DNA from: Oscillospiraceae bacterium
GTDB lineage: Bacteria > Bacillota > Clostridia > Oscillospirales > Acutalibacteraceae
Assembly (NCBI GenBank): GCA_022508845.1
Contig: JAFLUL010000010.1
Location: 1 to 39,544, forward strand
Length of the DNA stretch: 39,544 bases
Direction of reading: 5' to 3'
Shown: positions 1,689-34,022 of the stretch, piece by piece
Layout of the letters: each line of letters starts with the position of its first letter
Position numbering within the stretch: the first letter of the stretch is position 1
Notes under the pieces: model-generated
Seen by the model: the letters and a program-made list of their open reading frames with translations, nothing else
What the model was told of the DNA's origin: nothing
Database searches by the model: none
Position numbers and translations under genes: made by a program

Positions 1689-4600
1689 ATGCTTTATAAA
1701 AAAAATAACGAAAACACTCTAAGCGACTCTCTTTTTAAAAATCCCACCTCTGAATACAGAGGCACACCCTTTTGGGCCTGGAACTCTTTTTTAACGAAAG
1801 AAGAGCTTTGCCGTCAGATAGACGTTTTTAAGGAAATGGGGCTCGGAGGCTTTCATATGCACGTCCGAACCGGCCTTGAAAACAAATACCTTGACGAGGA
1901 CTTTTTAGAGCTGGTTAAAGCGTGTGTTAAAAAAGCAAAGGACGAGGATATGCTCGCCTGGCTCTATGATGAGGATCGCTGGCCTTCCGGCGCGGCAGGA
2001 GGAATTGTTACAAAGGACGAAAAATACCGTGCCCGCTGCCTGCTTTTTACAAATCAAAAACAGGGAGAAATATGGAATGTTGTTGATTCACGCTCAGAGG
2101 GCGGCAGAAGCGGCAAGGGAAAAACAATAGCCTGCTACGATGTTAAATTAAACGCGGACGGCCTTTTGACCGAATATAAGAGAATAGACGAAAACGCAGA
2201 TGCCGAGGGCGAAAAATGGTTTGCTCTTCTCGAGATCCATCAGTCCTCATCCTGGTATAACGGCGAAACCTACGCCGACACTCTGAGCGAGGAAGCAATA
2301 AAGCGTTTTGTTGAGGTGACGCACGAGAGCTATAAAAAGACGGTGGGTAGCGAGTTTGACAAAACAGTTCCCGCTATTTTCACCGACGAGCCTCAGTTCA
2401 CCCGCAAAAAAACGCTTGAAAGAAGCCTTGCCGAAGGCAGAACGGACGTAACTCTCCCCTGGACGGACAGCGTTCCGAAGGGATATATGGATACCTACGG
2501 CGAGGATATTCTAGACTATCTTCCCGAACTTTTCTGGGAAAAAGCCGGCAGCGGCGTTTCAGTTCACCGCTACCGCTACCACGACTATATTTCAGAGCTT
2601 TTTGCCCGTTCTTTTGCCGACACCGTTGGAAAATGGTGCAGAGATAACAAAATAGCTCTAACCGGTCATATGATGGAGGAGCCAACCCTCAAATCGCAAA
2701 CAGCGGCTCTCGGAGAGGCTATGCGATCCTATCGGGGCTTTGACATACCCGGCATTGACCTTTTATGCAATCGCCACGAGTTTACAACGGCAAAGCAGGC
2801 ACAGAGCGCGGCACATCAGTTCGGCAGAGAGGGAGTTCTCTCAGAGCTGTACGGCGTTACGGGCTGGGACGCGGATTTCAGAACCTACCGCCATCAGGGC
2901 GACTGGCAGGCAGCCCTCGGAATAACCGTCAGAGTGCCGCATCTTTCCTGGTATGCCATGCAAGGAGAAGCAAAGCGCGACTATCCCGCGTCCATAAGCT
3001 ATCAATCAGCCTGGTATAAGGAATTTTCGGAGATTGAAAACCACTTTGCAAGGGTAAACACCGCGCTTACAAGGGGAAAACCCATTATCAGAGCTGCAGT
3101 CATCCATCCCGTTGAGAGCTACTGGCTCCACTGGGGACCAAACGACAAAACCGCCGCTGTTAGAAACGATATGGACGAGCGCTTTCAGTCGCTCACCGAA
3201 TGGCTGGTTTCGGGACAGATAGACTTCAATTTTATAAGCGAAGCTCTTCTCCCATCTCTTTGTGATAAAGGGTCAGCGCCCCTTAGGGTTGGAGAAATGG
3301 AATATGACGCCGTTATCGTTCCCGCCTGCGAAACGTTGAGGAAAACAACACTTGATCGCCTTGAAGAGTTCAAAGCTGCGGGAGGAAGGCTCATCTTTCT
3401 TGACAGCGCGCCTGCTTATGAGGACGCCCTCCCTTCGGACAGGGGTGAAAAGCTTTATAATATCAGCGAAAAGGTGAATTTCTCCCGCTCAGCGGTGCTC
3501 GGCGCCCTCGAGGACTTAAGAGAGGTTCGCATAAGCTATACGGACGGCTCGCCTTCTTATGAGTTTCTGACCCAGTTAAGGCAGGACAACAACTGCCGAT
3601 GGCTGTTTATAGCTCACACCTATGAGCCTTGGAACAAGCATCTCTATTCGGGCAGACGCGTTTTTATAACCGTAAAGGGTGAATATTCTCCCTTGCTCTA
3701 TAACACATCAAACGGCGAAATAAGCCCCGTAGGAGCGGACTACATAAACGGAAACACAGTTATAAAAACAGTAATTTTCGGTTATGATTCCGTGCTGTTA
3801 AAGCTCACACCTGGCAAATCGGACAAAAAAGCCGCTTTCCCCGCCGAAACTAAGGGAGAGCGAGCGTTTGTAACCCGACCTGAGAGCTTCTCGCTCAGCG
3901 AAGAAAACGTTTTGGTGCTCGACAAGGCAGAGGCGAGCGTCGACGGCGGCGATTTCCTCCCCGAAGAGGAGATACTGCGGCTTGATAATATTTGCCGCGA
4001 CGTTCTCGGACTGAAGCACAGAGGAGGGCATGTTAAGCAGCCGTGGGCTATGGAAAAAGAAACTCTTACCCACAGCGTTACCTTAAAATTCCGTTTCAGG
4101 AGCGAAATAAGCGTTTTGGGTGCGTCCCTTGCCCTTGAAAGCGCAGACAAGGCAAAAATAAGCTTTAACGGCAAAGAAGTGCCAAACAGCAAAACAGGCA
4201 ATTTCATTGATATTGCAATAGATAAAATTAAGCTCCCCGAAATAAAGCAGGGCGAAAACGAGCTTATAATAACCTACCCGTTCGGGAACACCTTCGGACT
4301 TGAAAACGTTTTTATAACAGGCGATTTCGGAGTTCGTACCGAAGGCGAAAGAGCCGTTATAACCGAAATGCCGAAAGAGCTTTATTTCGGCGATCTAACG
4401 CGCCAGGGACTTCCCTTCTACGGCGGAGAGGTTCGCTACCGCTTTAAGGCAAAGGCGGTAAACGGCGGACTCACAATTCGGGTTTCAGACTATTTCGGAG
4501 CGGTAATAAAGGTAAAAATAGACGGCAAACAGGCAGGACATATAATCTACCCGCCGTATGAGCTGAAAGCCTCCGCTCTTGAGGACGGCGAGCACGAAAT

Positions 4601-32545: not shown

Positions 32546-32621
32546 ATATAATTTTTTTATATCTCATTGTGAAATAAATACAAAATTTTTTGAAAAACTT
32601 AAAAAATTTTATTAAAAACTG

Positions 32622-32650
32622 TTGACATTTTGTTTTTTAAATGCTAATAT
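32622..32650 (+). promoter_or_regulatory. Strong promoter of the putative long non-coding RNA
   Basis: -35 TTGACA (32622-32627), a 17-nt spacer, and -10 TAATAT (32645-32650) preceded by TGC, an extended -10. It is one of the best promoters in the window, yet no normal gene follows for 490 nt. Confidence 0.8.
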
Positions 32651-33052
32651 TTAGATGCAAAGAGAAATAAAGCTAAAGCAAAAAGAAAAAAGGCGCAAAC
32701 CGAATGCATGGTTCAATGCAAAACAAAAAACGGCGCAGAAAAATCAAAAAGAGCTTTAGTTTAAGGAGGCTGGTACCGATGTTCTGAGAATACGCAAACG
32801 ATCCGCGGTAAAGTGATCGCAGCAGGCAGACCAAAAATAAAAAAGGAGAAAACTCCAATGACCTGAAAAAGCGCGAGGTTCAGCGTGAAAATAAAAAGAA
32901 CCGTTAAAACGAATTAAAACGCTCCCGATTGAAGAATGAATTGTTGCTATAAGAGAATAATGGTGGATAAAAATTGCAGCGTGATGCGTTAAAAAGCGTT
33001 TCGAAAATTCGTTATATATAAAAGATAAATAAAATAGGAGGTTTCCCTAAAA

Positions 33053-33073
33053 ATGAAAGAACCCGTTGATTAA
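33053..33073 (+). CDS. Six-residue leader peptide MKEPVD
   Basis: ATG 33053 is preceded by AGGAGG (33036-33041, spacing 11). It encodes M-K-E-P-V-D and ends at TAA 33071-33073, the base before the terminator stem. A tiny ORF ending at a terminator, followed by a regulator gene, is the arrangement of attenuation leaders. Translation is not proven. Confidence 0.4.
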   Translation: MKEPVD

Positions 33074-33117
33074 CGGCCGTCGGCAATCAGATTGATTTGA
33101 CCGGCGGCTGTTTTTTT
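33074..33117 (+). terminator. Rho-independent terminator before the XRE pseudogene
   Basis: CGGCCGTCGG (33074-33083) pairs with CCGGCGGCTG (33101-33110), 10 bp with two wobble pairs. An inner CAAT/ATTG helix sits in the loop, and seven T follow (33111-33117). Confidence 0.88.
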
Positions 33118-33143
33118 GTTATGAAATATACGGAGGATATGCT

Positions 33144-33355
33144 ATGGATTATTCTCAAAAATATGGGAACTGATAGGCATTCTTTGCAAAAAAGCGCGGT
33201 ATTTCTGTAAACAAACCGGGAACGATGAGCGGGGTAAAGCAATCAACCTGATAGAATTACGGAGAGGACTTACGCAAAATCCGCACGTTAAAACGCTGCA
33301 TATGATTTCTGCCGCGTTTAATATTACACTCTCGCAGTTTCTTGATTTTGAATAA
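33144..33355 (+). pseudogene. Frameshifted XRE-family (Cro/C1) HTH regulator
   Basis: GGAGG (33132-33136) and ATG 33144 start a reading frame that is lost after nine codons. Joining three frames restores a 70-residue XRE protein: MDYSQKIWELIG, then CKKRGISVNK, VKQSTLIELRRGLT and ITLSQFLDFE. The repairs needed are one extra A near 33162, one A fewer in the A6 run near 33190, and one extra C near 33252. All are one-base changes in short runs. The order of segments matches the HTH_3 fold, with NPHVKTLHMISAAF as its fourth helix. It is either a true pseudogene or affected by sequencing indels. Confidence 0.75.
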
Positions 33356-33456: not shown

Positions 33457-33485
33457 TTGACAAAAACCGTTTGTTGTATTATTAT
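33457..33485 (+). promoter_or_regulatory. Sigma-A promoter for the 32-residue ORF and LytTR module
   Basis: -35 TTGACA (33457-33462), a 17-nt spacer, and -10 TATTAT (33480-33485). Confidence 0.75.
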
Positions 33486-33522
33486 GTCAAACACAATAAA
33501 AAATGAAAGGATGGTGAATAAA

Positions 33523-33621
33523 ATGACAAAGGTAAGGTTTGTTTCTTACGCCCGTGAACAGAAAAATTATAATTTAAAACCGCAAAAGCGGAGGCTCGTT
33601 TTATTCGCCTTATATATATAA
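33523..33621 (+). CDS. Small basic protein, 32 residues
   Basis: ATG 33523 is preceded by AAAGGATGG (33506-33514, spacing about 8) and ends at TAA 33619-33621. The peptide starts MTKVRFVSYAREQK and ends LVLFALYI: a basic, tyrosine-rich N-terminal part and a short hydrophobic tail. It has its own consensus promoter and is followed 21 nt later by a strong terminator, so it is transcribed as a short message. No family is recognised. It could be a peptide signal, a small membrane-binding peptide, or a leader ORF controlling read-through into the LytTR gene. Confidence 0.55.
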   Translation: MTKVRFVSYAREQKNYNLKPQKRRLVLFALYI

Positions 33622-33642
33622 ACGGCAAAATAATAAAATTAC

Positions 33643-33674
33643 GGCATCTCCGGCGGCGGGAGATGCCTTTTTTT
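33643..33674 (+). terminator. Rho-independent terminator abutting the LytTR ribosome site
   Basis: GGCATCTCC (33643-33651) pairs perfectly with GGAGATGCC (33659-33667), followed by seven T (33668-33674). GGAGG of the LytTR gene begins two bases later, so LytTR expression from the upstream promoter needs read-through. Confidence 0.92.
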
Positions 33675-33686
33675 ATGGAGGAAATT

Positions 33687-34022
33687 ATGGACACAAATGA
33701 AACTATAACGCTAAAATGGAAAAATCTGCGATGGCGGGTGGCTAAATCGGACATAATTTATGCCGAGAGCTACGCTCGCCACGTTACAGTACACACCGCC
33801 GAAAGAAATTATGAGGTTGTCGGAAAGCTGAGCGACTTCTACAGAGAGCTTGAGAACAGCGGCTTTGTAAGGATTCATCAGAGCTTTATTGTTAACATAA
33901 GACATATAAAATGCTTTTCGTATGACAGCGTAACGCTCAAGGACTCAACCGTTCTGCCGGTGAGCGAAAGAAAAAAAGCCTCCGCCAGGGCGAAGGTGGA
34001 TGAACTGAATTCGCTTTTTTAA
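33687..34022 (+). CDS. Stand-alone LytTR DNA-binding regulator
   Basis: A 111-residue protein made almost entirely of a LytTR domain: ITLKWKNLRWRVAKSDIIYAES, RHVTVHTAERNYEVVGKLSDF, then GFVRIHQSFIVNIRHI and a late VLPVSERKKASARAKV. There is no receiver domain, so it is controlled by abundance or by a partner rather than by phosphorylation of its own domain. ATG 33687 has GGAGG 6 nt upstream; an in-frame start at 33663 would lie in the terminator. LytTR proteins control competence, bacteriocin and quorum genes. Stop 34022 faces a convergent lipoprotein gene 5 bp away. Confidence 0.9.
   Translation: MDTNETITLKWKNLRWRVAKSDIIYAESYARHVTVHTAERNYEVVGKLSDFYRELENSGFVRIHQSFIVNIRHIKCFSYDSVTLKDSTVLPVSERKKASARAKVDELNSLF

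What the first reader, a model, noticed from the sequence alone, without database searches (positions are those of the whole stretch)
32600..33120. Strong promoter feeding about 460 nt of folded, gene-free sequence
TTGACA-N17-TGC-TAATAT is close to the best possible promoter, yet no gene of normal size follows. The transcript has several complementary arms, including a long-range 8+6 bp helix (32908-32922 with 32996-33013), and ends at a strong terminator. High expression plus structure plus no ORF suggests an abundant non-coding RNA. I know of no family that it matches.
Basis: partly seen in the sequence, partly recalled or inferred. Interest (0 to 1): 0.78.

Follow-up and report, generated by a model that had tools for sequence, protein, structure and literature searches.

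The report
Conserved RNA with tiny ribosome sites
A gene-free stretch of a Clostridia-type bacterium looks like a real, conserved free-standing RNA whose best-kept parts are very strong ribosome landing sites that each open only a two- to six-codon reading frame, so it may hold ribosomes or be stabilised by them rather than make protein; it has not been tested at the bench here.

Summary
The region is real and conserved: promoter, structured 5' domain, intrinsic terminator, no gene-sized ORF, no Rfam family. Six of 26 genus genomes carry it (patchy). Homologues keep pairing through some compensatory changes: an outer helix, one pseudoknot stem, a hairpin. After the 5' domain lies a Shine-Dalgarno (SD) site whose predicted pairing with the 16S rRNA tail (-17.0 kcal/mol) beats all 37 larger window ORFs tested, opening a two-codon ORF (Met-Phe-stop; stop kept as TGA, TAG or TAA). 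A second two-codon ORF follows, and a six-codon ORF abuts the terminator. A kindred extended SD plus two-codon ORF is over-represented across the order (21 places against 5 for a frame-shifted control, 157 genomes). In other genera and one other family it sits, sometimes as an array, in gene-free transcripts divergent from DUF1292-6S RNA. My reading: a free-standing RNA built to dock ribosomes (stabilising itself, titrating ribosomes, or both). The mechanism is inferred, about 0.4; the RNA being real and conserved, about 0.9. Homology of the window's RNA with the 6S-linked arrays is likely but unproven.

The parts
32622..32650 (+). sigma-70 type promoter, TTGACA-N17-TAATAT with TG
   Evidence: aligned in 5 homologues; promoter plus start pattern found in 10 of 398 family genomes (window included), 0 reversed-pattern controls
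32653..32660 (+). AGATGCAA at the inferred transcription start
   Evidence: kept in G024, G016, G007 and in other genera, varied in G023 and G005; the start site itself is inferred
32672..32760 (+). 5' domain: outer helix P1 32672-32679/32753-32760, inner helix P2 32693-32696/32733-32736
   Evidence: P1 paired in 5 of 5 sequences, one of 8 pairs changed on both sides; P2 almost invariant, so little evidence
32698..32720 (+). H-type pseudoknot: AACC 32698-32701/GGTT 32710-32713 crossed with TGCAT 32705-32709/ATGCA 32716-32720
   Evidence: second stem: 2 of 5 pairs changed on both sides, its last pair unpaired in 3 of 5; first stem invariant but for one mismatch, so it neither supports nor refutes
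32763..32777 (+). extended Shine-Dalgarno site AAGGAGG-c-UGGU-a-CC
   Evidence: predicted duplex with the 16S tail -17.0 kcal/mol; strongest of 37 larger window ORFs -14.0
32779..32787 (+). two-codon ORF, Met-Phe-stop
   Evidence: present in 6 of 6 genus sequences, stop TGA (3), TAA (2), TAG (1); TTG start in G005
32799..32819 (+). hairpin CGATC/GATCG just after the two-codon ORF
   Evidence: 2 of 5 pairs changed on both sides among 6 sequences
32843..32866 (+). second SD and two-codon ORF (32858-32866, Met-Thr-stop)
   Evidence: Met-Phe-stop at the same place in G023 only; SD energy -11.5, not exceptional
   Evidence: present; partly kept in G023, 3' arm absent in four others
33036..33073 (+). 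third SD (33036-33041) and six-codon ORF 33053-33073, Met-Lys-Glu-Pro-Val-Asp
   Evidence: ORF in 5 of 6 genus sequences; SD energy -14.8; with the terminator 70/78, 63/74, 56/74 and 57/76 identical columns in four homologues, 24/54 in G005
33076..33118 (+). intrinsic terminator, 11 pairs here (12 in four homologues) with a bulged A, then T-run

Best explanation
The region makes a free-standing RNA of about 460 nt (about 32656-33117). Its 5' end folds into a helix-bound domain with a pseudoknot. Immediately after it the RNA offers an extended SD that can pair with nearly the whole single-stranded tail of 16S rRNA and places the ribosome on AUG-UUC-stop. A second two-codon ORF and a six-codon ORF next to the terminator give further ribosome landing sites. 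I think the RNA works by capturing 30S subunits or whole ribosomes at these sites: initiation is very strong but almost no peptide is made, so ribosomes are parked near both ends. The likely consequences are that the RNA is shielded from 5'-3' decay and that it ties up ribosomes (or initiator and Phe-tRNA) when abundant. Shown: the anatomy, its conservation, some covariation, and the order-wide excess of the SD/two-codon combination. Inferred: transcription level, ribosome binding, and both consequences.
For: Homologues in 6 of 26 genus genomes, the window's included, with no common downstream gene in those read. Stop of the two-codon ORF kept through three stop codons. Covariation in P1, one pseudoknot stem and the post-ORF hairpin, with slid controls far lower. 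SD-16S tail energy -17.0 here and -15.0 to -21.6 at one site each in 11 homologues and kin tested (a second site in G023 -11.0), against -14.0 for the best of 37 larger window ORFs; 1.2% of 1099 window ATGs reach -13. In 157 genomes of the order GTGAKTCCRATG is followed by a two-codon ORF (TAA or TGA) at 21 places (13 genomes), with one extra base at 5 places (5 genomes); reversed-pattern controls 2 and 1; GTGAGTCC subset 16 against 1. Arrays in free-standing transcripts: L149 has six motif copies, three with two-codon ORFs; L165 has five ORFs of two or three codons between promoter and terminator. Some copies lack AUG but keep the motif, as expected if docking matters more than peptide.
Against: No expression or ribosome-profiling data. 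The 16S tail was recalled, not read from this genome, and the starts of the 37 ORFs are the first possible ones, which may understate their SDs. The motif is also an ordinary strong ribosome site: of 17 places read among 22 found, 2 start normal genes and 6 are mini-ORF leaders ahead of genes that look secreted by eye, so docking need not be the RNA's purpose. Patchy: 10 of 12 near-complete genus genomes lack it by this search. First ORFs at the motif in five other genera of the family are 8-24 codons, not two. The number of pairs changed on both sides is itself reached by 99 of 500 and 299 of 500 shuffles; only the cell-based and covariation measures stand out. The window RNA and the 6S-linked arrays share SD type and mini-ORF habit (some also the promoter start) but I found no alignable body.
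Confidence: 0.4

Rival explanations
1. A structured regulatory small RNA that acts through its 5' pseudoknot domain or by base-pairing or protein binding; the SD/two-codon sites only stabilise it against 5'-3' decay, as STAB-SD sites do for some Bacillus mRNAs.
For: Covarying 5' domain lies directly before the first site; 30S binding at an SD-like site blocks RNase J1 on cry3A mRNA (PMC4113751, passages); a two-codon minigene raised txe expression, possibly by protecting mRNA (PMC8708949, passages).
Against: No target known; a STAB-SD does not start translation whereas here start and stop codons are kept; arrays of up to six motifs exceed what 5' protection needs; I did not recognise the pseudoknot domain by eye in the g67 relatives.
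Confidence: 0.27
2. A minigene RNA: two-codon translation with strong SD releases peptidyl-tRNA and ties up tRNA (here tRNA-Phe), as phage lambda bar minigenes do (bar recalled).
For: Two-codon frames are the most toxic minigenes and a strong SD increases toxicity (PMC8708949 passages); 10 of 10 first sites read in the genus (6) and in genus g67 (4) use UUC, and in g67 the RNA is divergent from T-box leaders, with pheS behind them in the two tested.
Against: Second codon is not constant elsewhere: Thr at the window's own second site, and Tyr, Thr, Arg, Gly, Ile in relatives; no growth inhibition was seen for the axe-txe minigene.
Confidence: 0.12
3. An mRNA for very short functional peptides.
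For: The 3' ORF keeps Met-x-Glu/Asp-Pro/Thr/Ser across two genera; ORFs of 16-24 codons start at the motif in other genera.
Against: The most widely kept frame in the genus has only two codons; the middle of the RNA has non-triplet indels and no conserved frame.
Confidence: 0.09
4. An orphaned leader or attenuator, or a decayed gene.
For: Mini-ORF leaders with the same motif stand before secreted-looking genes elsewhere; a broken HTH-like gene follows at 33144.
Against: Promoter, domain, mini-ORFs and terminator are conserved in homologues with different neighbours; no ancestral frame found.
Confidence: 0.07

Closest known systems
Two-codon minigenes in leaders (axe-txe; LEE1/ler)
   Same: AUG-NNN-stop after a strong SD (PMC8708949, abstract and passages)
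   Different: Those act in cis on a downstream gene; here a terminator follows and no common downstream gene was seen
STAB-SD of cry3A-type mRNAs
   Same: SD-like site near the 5' end that can bind the 16S tail (PMC4113751, passages)
   Different: STAB-SD does not start translation and serves an mRNA; here start and stop codons are kept and the RNA has no gene
Phage lambda bar minigene RNA (recalled; search listing only)
   Same: two-codon ORF with strong SD
   Different: no phage context found; structured 5' domain; several sites
CsrB/RsmZ-type sponge RNAs (recalled)
   Same: in relatives, one motif repeated along a gene-free RNA and also present in mRNA leaders
   Different: motif resembles the complement of the ribosome's own anti-SD; the window RNA has only three sites
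6S RNA
   Same: in six relatives the mini-ORF RNA lies divergent to DUF1292-6S
   Different: the RNA itself has no Rfam match to 6S

Membership tests
any Rfam 15 family | covariance-model score at gathering threshold | tested here: not met
   0 in window; lax search of 32600-33140 best E 0.89; in five genus loci with flanks only a T-box beside the RNA in G005 (83.9 bits, gathering 93), the rest E 0.58 or worse
tmRNA / tRNA | ARAGORN match | tested here: not met
   0 genes in the window
leader minigene | two-codon ORF with strong SD | tested here: met
   32779-32787, -17.0 kcal/mol
leader minigene | regulated gene directly downstream on the same transcript | tested here: not met
   terminator at 33076-33118 and differing neighbours
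STAB-SD | extended complementarity to the 16S 3' end | tested here: met
   16S tail recalled
STAB-SD | does not direct initiation | tested here: inconclusive
   start and stop codons are conserved; initiation itself not testable
lambda bar-type minigene | peptidyl-tRNA drop-off and tRNA depletion | not testable with these tools
   needs bench work
CsrB-type sponge | many copies of one protein-binding motif | tested here: not met
   three SD sites in the window; six motif copies in L149; no binding protein known
phage- or plasmid-borne RNA | occurrence in phage, plasmid or viral collections | tested here: not met
   no match in phages or plasmids; 0 viral contigs for the specific pattern

The most novel reading that the evidence does not exclude
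This is one branch of an order-wide class of free-standing RNAs that hold ribosomes through extended anti-SD pairing and two-codon ORFs, the translational counterpart of 6S RNA, next to whose gene (divergent, with DUF1292 between) the class sits in six genera of two families: 6S parks RNA polymerase, this RNA parks ribosomes.
Probability: 0.2. Interest if true: 0.88.

Novelty: new variant of a known kind. Interest (0 to 1): 0.62.

Why it matters
If right, two-codon ORFs, which I met in the papers seen only as leader elements, are also the working parts of RNAs with no gene at all, and an RNA could tune ribosome availability by pairing with the 16S tail. The class is easy to test: it predicts 30S footprints at named sites. 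Even without that mechanism it is a conserved RNA family with covarying helices that matches no Rfam model.

Tried and rejected
Known RNA family: no match to the RNA itself. Protein gene on either strand: rejected; + strand ORFs at most 47 codons in six sequences, minus-strand ORFs (52-82 codons) explained by composition and not in a common frame. Phage or plasmid element: no support; the bare motif occurs in 4 viral contigs, and the one read, L187, shows it as an ordinary gene start.

Family-wide model searches: R2 gave 29 of 300 genomes at E up to 1, the window's included; of the 28 others I read 4: G238 not a member, G209 a member, G027 and G308 plausible. R1 gave 65 of 300; of the 64 others I read 3 (G022, G186, G099), none a member. 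Promoter pattern: 10 of 398 genomes, all ten read; G122 looks like a type I antitoxin RNA opposite a small hydrophobic ORF and was dropped. Relaxed promoter pattern: 10 of 245; of 9 besides the window I read 6 and only G453 shows the motif; G265, G461, G594 not read. A narrow pattern, KGAKWCCRATGTTCTRA, hit 3 of 14 chosen genomes and missed the window's own site. Weaker DNA hits (for example G045, read) are not members or were not pursued. A guess, also written in note 3, that the small gene beside 6S was zapA was wrong; it is DUF1292. A T-box-like reading of UGGUACCG was set aside because other genera have UGAGUCC.

Literature: nine completed searches, 112, 113, 117, 119, 120, 124, 125, 130, 138 (held open-access library only). 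Passages seen in PMC8708949, PMC4113751 and PMC8632094; other listed papers seen as listing and start of abstract only. None of the titles and abstract starts listed describes a free-standing array of two-codon ORFs, but subscription papers are not held.

Full report
What was checked. The stretch 32600-33140 holds a TTGACA-N17-TAATAT promoter with TG before the second hexamer, about 460 nt without a gene-sized frame, and a GC-rich stem with a T-run at 33076-33118. Taken alone none of this beats chance: 6 promoter-like sites were found against 5.4 in shuffles and the fold has z = -1.37, with 8 of 100 shuffles as stable. Rfam gives nothing at gathering thresholds in the whole window and nothing better than E 0.89 on this stretch. 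ARAGORN finds no tRNA or tmRNA.

Homologues. A DNA search of 59 genomes (the window's included) found one near full-length relative at 75% identity (G023) and partial ones in G024, G007, G016 and G005; weaker hits were not members where read (G045) or not pursued. A covariance model of the 5' part finds 6 of 26 genomes of the genus, the window's included, and 2 of 12 of the near-complete ones; the RNA is therefore patchy or diverges fast. A scan of named genome contigs with a promoter-to-Met-Phe-stop pattern found four, all titled Clostridia, two of them from goat omasum. Flanking genes differ: aldo/keto reductase here, MatE in G023, CorA in G024, and in G005 a T-box with a class II tRNA synthetase of the D/K/N type. 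After the terminator the sequences hardly align (9 of 25 columns with G023), while the six-codon ORF plus terminator keep 70 of 78 columns with G023 and 63 of 74, 56 of 74 and 57 of 76 with three others; G005 (24 of 54) lacks a recognisable 3' module.

Structure. On five sequences, a structure of 22 pairs (outer helix, inner helix, two crossed stems of an H-type pseudoknot) forms 96.3% of pair cells, against 24-41% when slid by 1-3 columns; three pairs change on both sides, a number that 99 of 500 shuffles reach, while the covariation score is reached by 4 of 500. Support comes from the outer helix and the second pseudoknot stem; the first pseudoknot stem and the inner helix hardly vary, and the last pair of the second stem is unpaired in 3 of 5. 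Three inner-helix cells of the window are lost to an alignment gap. G005, not used there, shows AGCAA/TTGCT for the second pseudoknot stem by direct reading. A hairpin just after the two-codon ORF forms 93.1% of cells in six sequences, two of five pairs changed on both sides (299 of 500 shuffles reach that number; 18 of 500 reach the covariation score). I chose these helices by eye on the same sequences, so the slid controls are favourable by construction, and few sequences are involved.

Mini-ORFs. All six genus sequences have a strong SD followed by A/TTG-TTC-stop, the stop being TGA (three), TAA (two) or TAG (one). G000 and G023 have a second two-codon ORF (Met-Thr in the window, Met-Phe in G023). 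Five of six have a six-codon ORF (MKEPVD twice, MKEPVV twice, MLEPTA) that ends a few bases before the terminator stem. The 25 nt before the window's first mini-ORF pair with the 16S tail at -17.0 kcal/mol, the third site at -14.8, the second at -11.5; the best of 37 larger window ORFs, taken at their first possible start, has -14.0, and 1.2% of 1099 window ATGs reach -13. Of 61 ATG-NNN-stop triples in the window, both strands, six have an SD of -8 or better by a narrower measure, and two of these are in this RNA, including the strongest (-14.0). The 16S tail used is the textbook Firmicutes form, recalled.

Wider kin. The promoter plus start string AGATGCAA occurs in 10 of 398 family genomes, the window's included, and in none as the reversed control; one of the ten, G122, looks like a type I antitoxin RNA instead. 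In the same-family genus g67, G209 and G436 have the two-codon Met-Phe ORF about 140 nt from the inferred start and MIDPV... before the terminator; G348 and G288 have a longer RNA of about 1.2 kb with Met-Phe-stop about 560-590 nt in and MIESMM or MIETMM before the terminator. All four lie divergent to a T-box leader; the gene behind it is pheS in the two tested. From these and others I took the consensus AAGGRGTGAKTCCRRTG, found at 22 places in 19 of 295 genomes of the order with no reversed control. The window's own site (AAGGAGGCTGGTACCGATG) does not match this consensus; it is a variant of it. I read 17 of the 22 places: nine lie in stretches that look gene-free by eye (G171, G095, G578, G469, G484, G539, G556 and two in G453), six are mini-ORF leaders ahead of genes with signal-peptide-like starts (G172, G541, G583, G555, G511, G058), two start ordinary genes (G530, G557) (gene kinds by eye, not searched). 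The motif is close to the complement of the 16S tail (AAGGAGGTGATCC, recalled).

Two-codon excess. GTGAKTCCRATG followed by a two-codon frame (TAA or TGA stop) occurs at 21 places in 13 of 157 genomes of the order; with one more base in between, 5 places in 5 genomes; the reversed-pattern controls gave 2 and 1. For GTGAGTCC alone the counts are 16 and 1. Nine of the 16 come from one genus (G447, G507, G556: the same three sites), so independent events are fewer than places. I read 8 of the 21 places: three in L149, one in L165, and G535 lie in gene-free transcripts; G555 is a leader; G508 and G452 lie between or after genes.

Position. Of 18 loci scanned with Rfam together with their flanks (5, 8, 5), six have 6S RNA divergent to the mini-ORF RNA (G087, G166, G027, G171, G556, G495), and in all six the gene between is DUF1292: six genera, two families. 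Five have a divergent T-box (G348, G288, G209, G436, and G005 below gathering), seven neither; several loci reach only 1.5 kb out, and the sets were not drawn at random. G556 and G495 are the arrays: promoter, a first ORF of about 17-20 codons, then a chain of SD/mini-ORF units up to a terminator. The window's RNA itself is not beside 6S: one search found none in the 39.5-kb window.

How it most likely works. Shown here: conservation, some covariation, the SD/mini-ORF anatomy, the order-wide excess. Inferred: that ribosomes bind these sites in vivo and that this is the point of the RNA. A two-codon frame after a very strong SD lets a ribosome assemble, make one peptide bond and stop; PMC8708949 (passages) reports from earlier work that with a strong SD upstream the ribosome reinitiates without dissociating. 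Such parked ribosomes would shield the RNA, as described for STAB-SD on cry3A mRNA (PMC4113751 passages), and, if the RNA is abundant, would tie up ribosomes. Copies of the motif without AUG in L110 and L149 fit docking better than peptide making. Against this, the motif is also used as an ordinary start, first ORFs in several genera are longer, and the window's RNA has only three sites.

Novelty. In the nine completed paper searches (listed in Tried and rejected) no listed title or abstract start describes a free-standing RNA made of such units; subscription papers are not held. I rate it a new variant of known kinds (minigene, STAB-SD, small RNA); it would be categorically new if ribosome holding is its function.

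Noticed in passing
33144-33355: A broken small helix-turn-helix-like gene (by eye) follows the terminator: start, early stops, then a frame ending ...LSQFLDFE. Described only; pieces not joined or searched.
   Followed up: no
33457-33667: A second promoter (TTGACA-N17-TATTAT, 11 of 12) leads into a 32-codon basic ORF (33523-33621) and a strong terminator-like hairpin 33643-33667 just before a LytTR-domain gene (33663-34022); looks like a leader-peptide attenuator.
   Followed up: partly
L107 about 2905-3097 and L108 about 2890-3080, minus strand: A GTCGTAAAGAAGGC element is repeated three times in each of the 1.2-kb RNAs of G348 and G288, between the promoter and the two-codon ORF; unexplained.
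   Followed up: no
L126 and L152 (G453): One genome carries two such RNAs whose 3' ORFs both hold EDGP (MGRLMRRLELKASEDGPKK and MKLMVAKRMNPMKDEDGPTIR), suggesting selected peptides.
   Followed up: no
L101 (G122): The promoter/start string also heads what looks like a type I antitoxin RNA opposite a small hydrophobic, holin-like ORF (by eye).
   Followed up: no
L144, L147, L148, L141, L140, L132: Mini-ORFs (MG, MG, MVHL, MGS, MATQNQKKYTI, MNLKSSKGS) with the same extended SD stand ahead of genes with signal-peptide-like starts in several families: a possible leader type for secreted proteins (by eye).
   Followed up: partly
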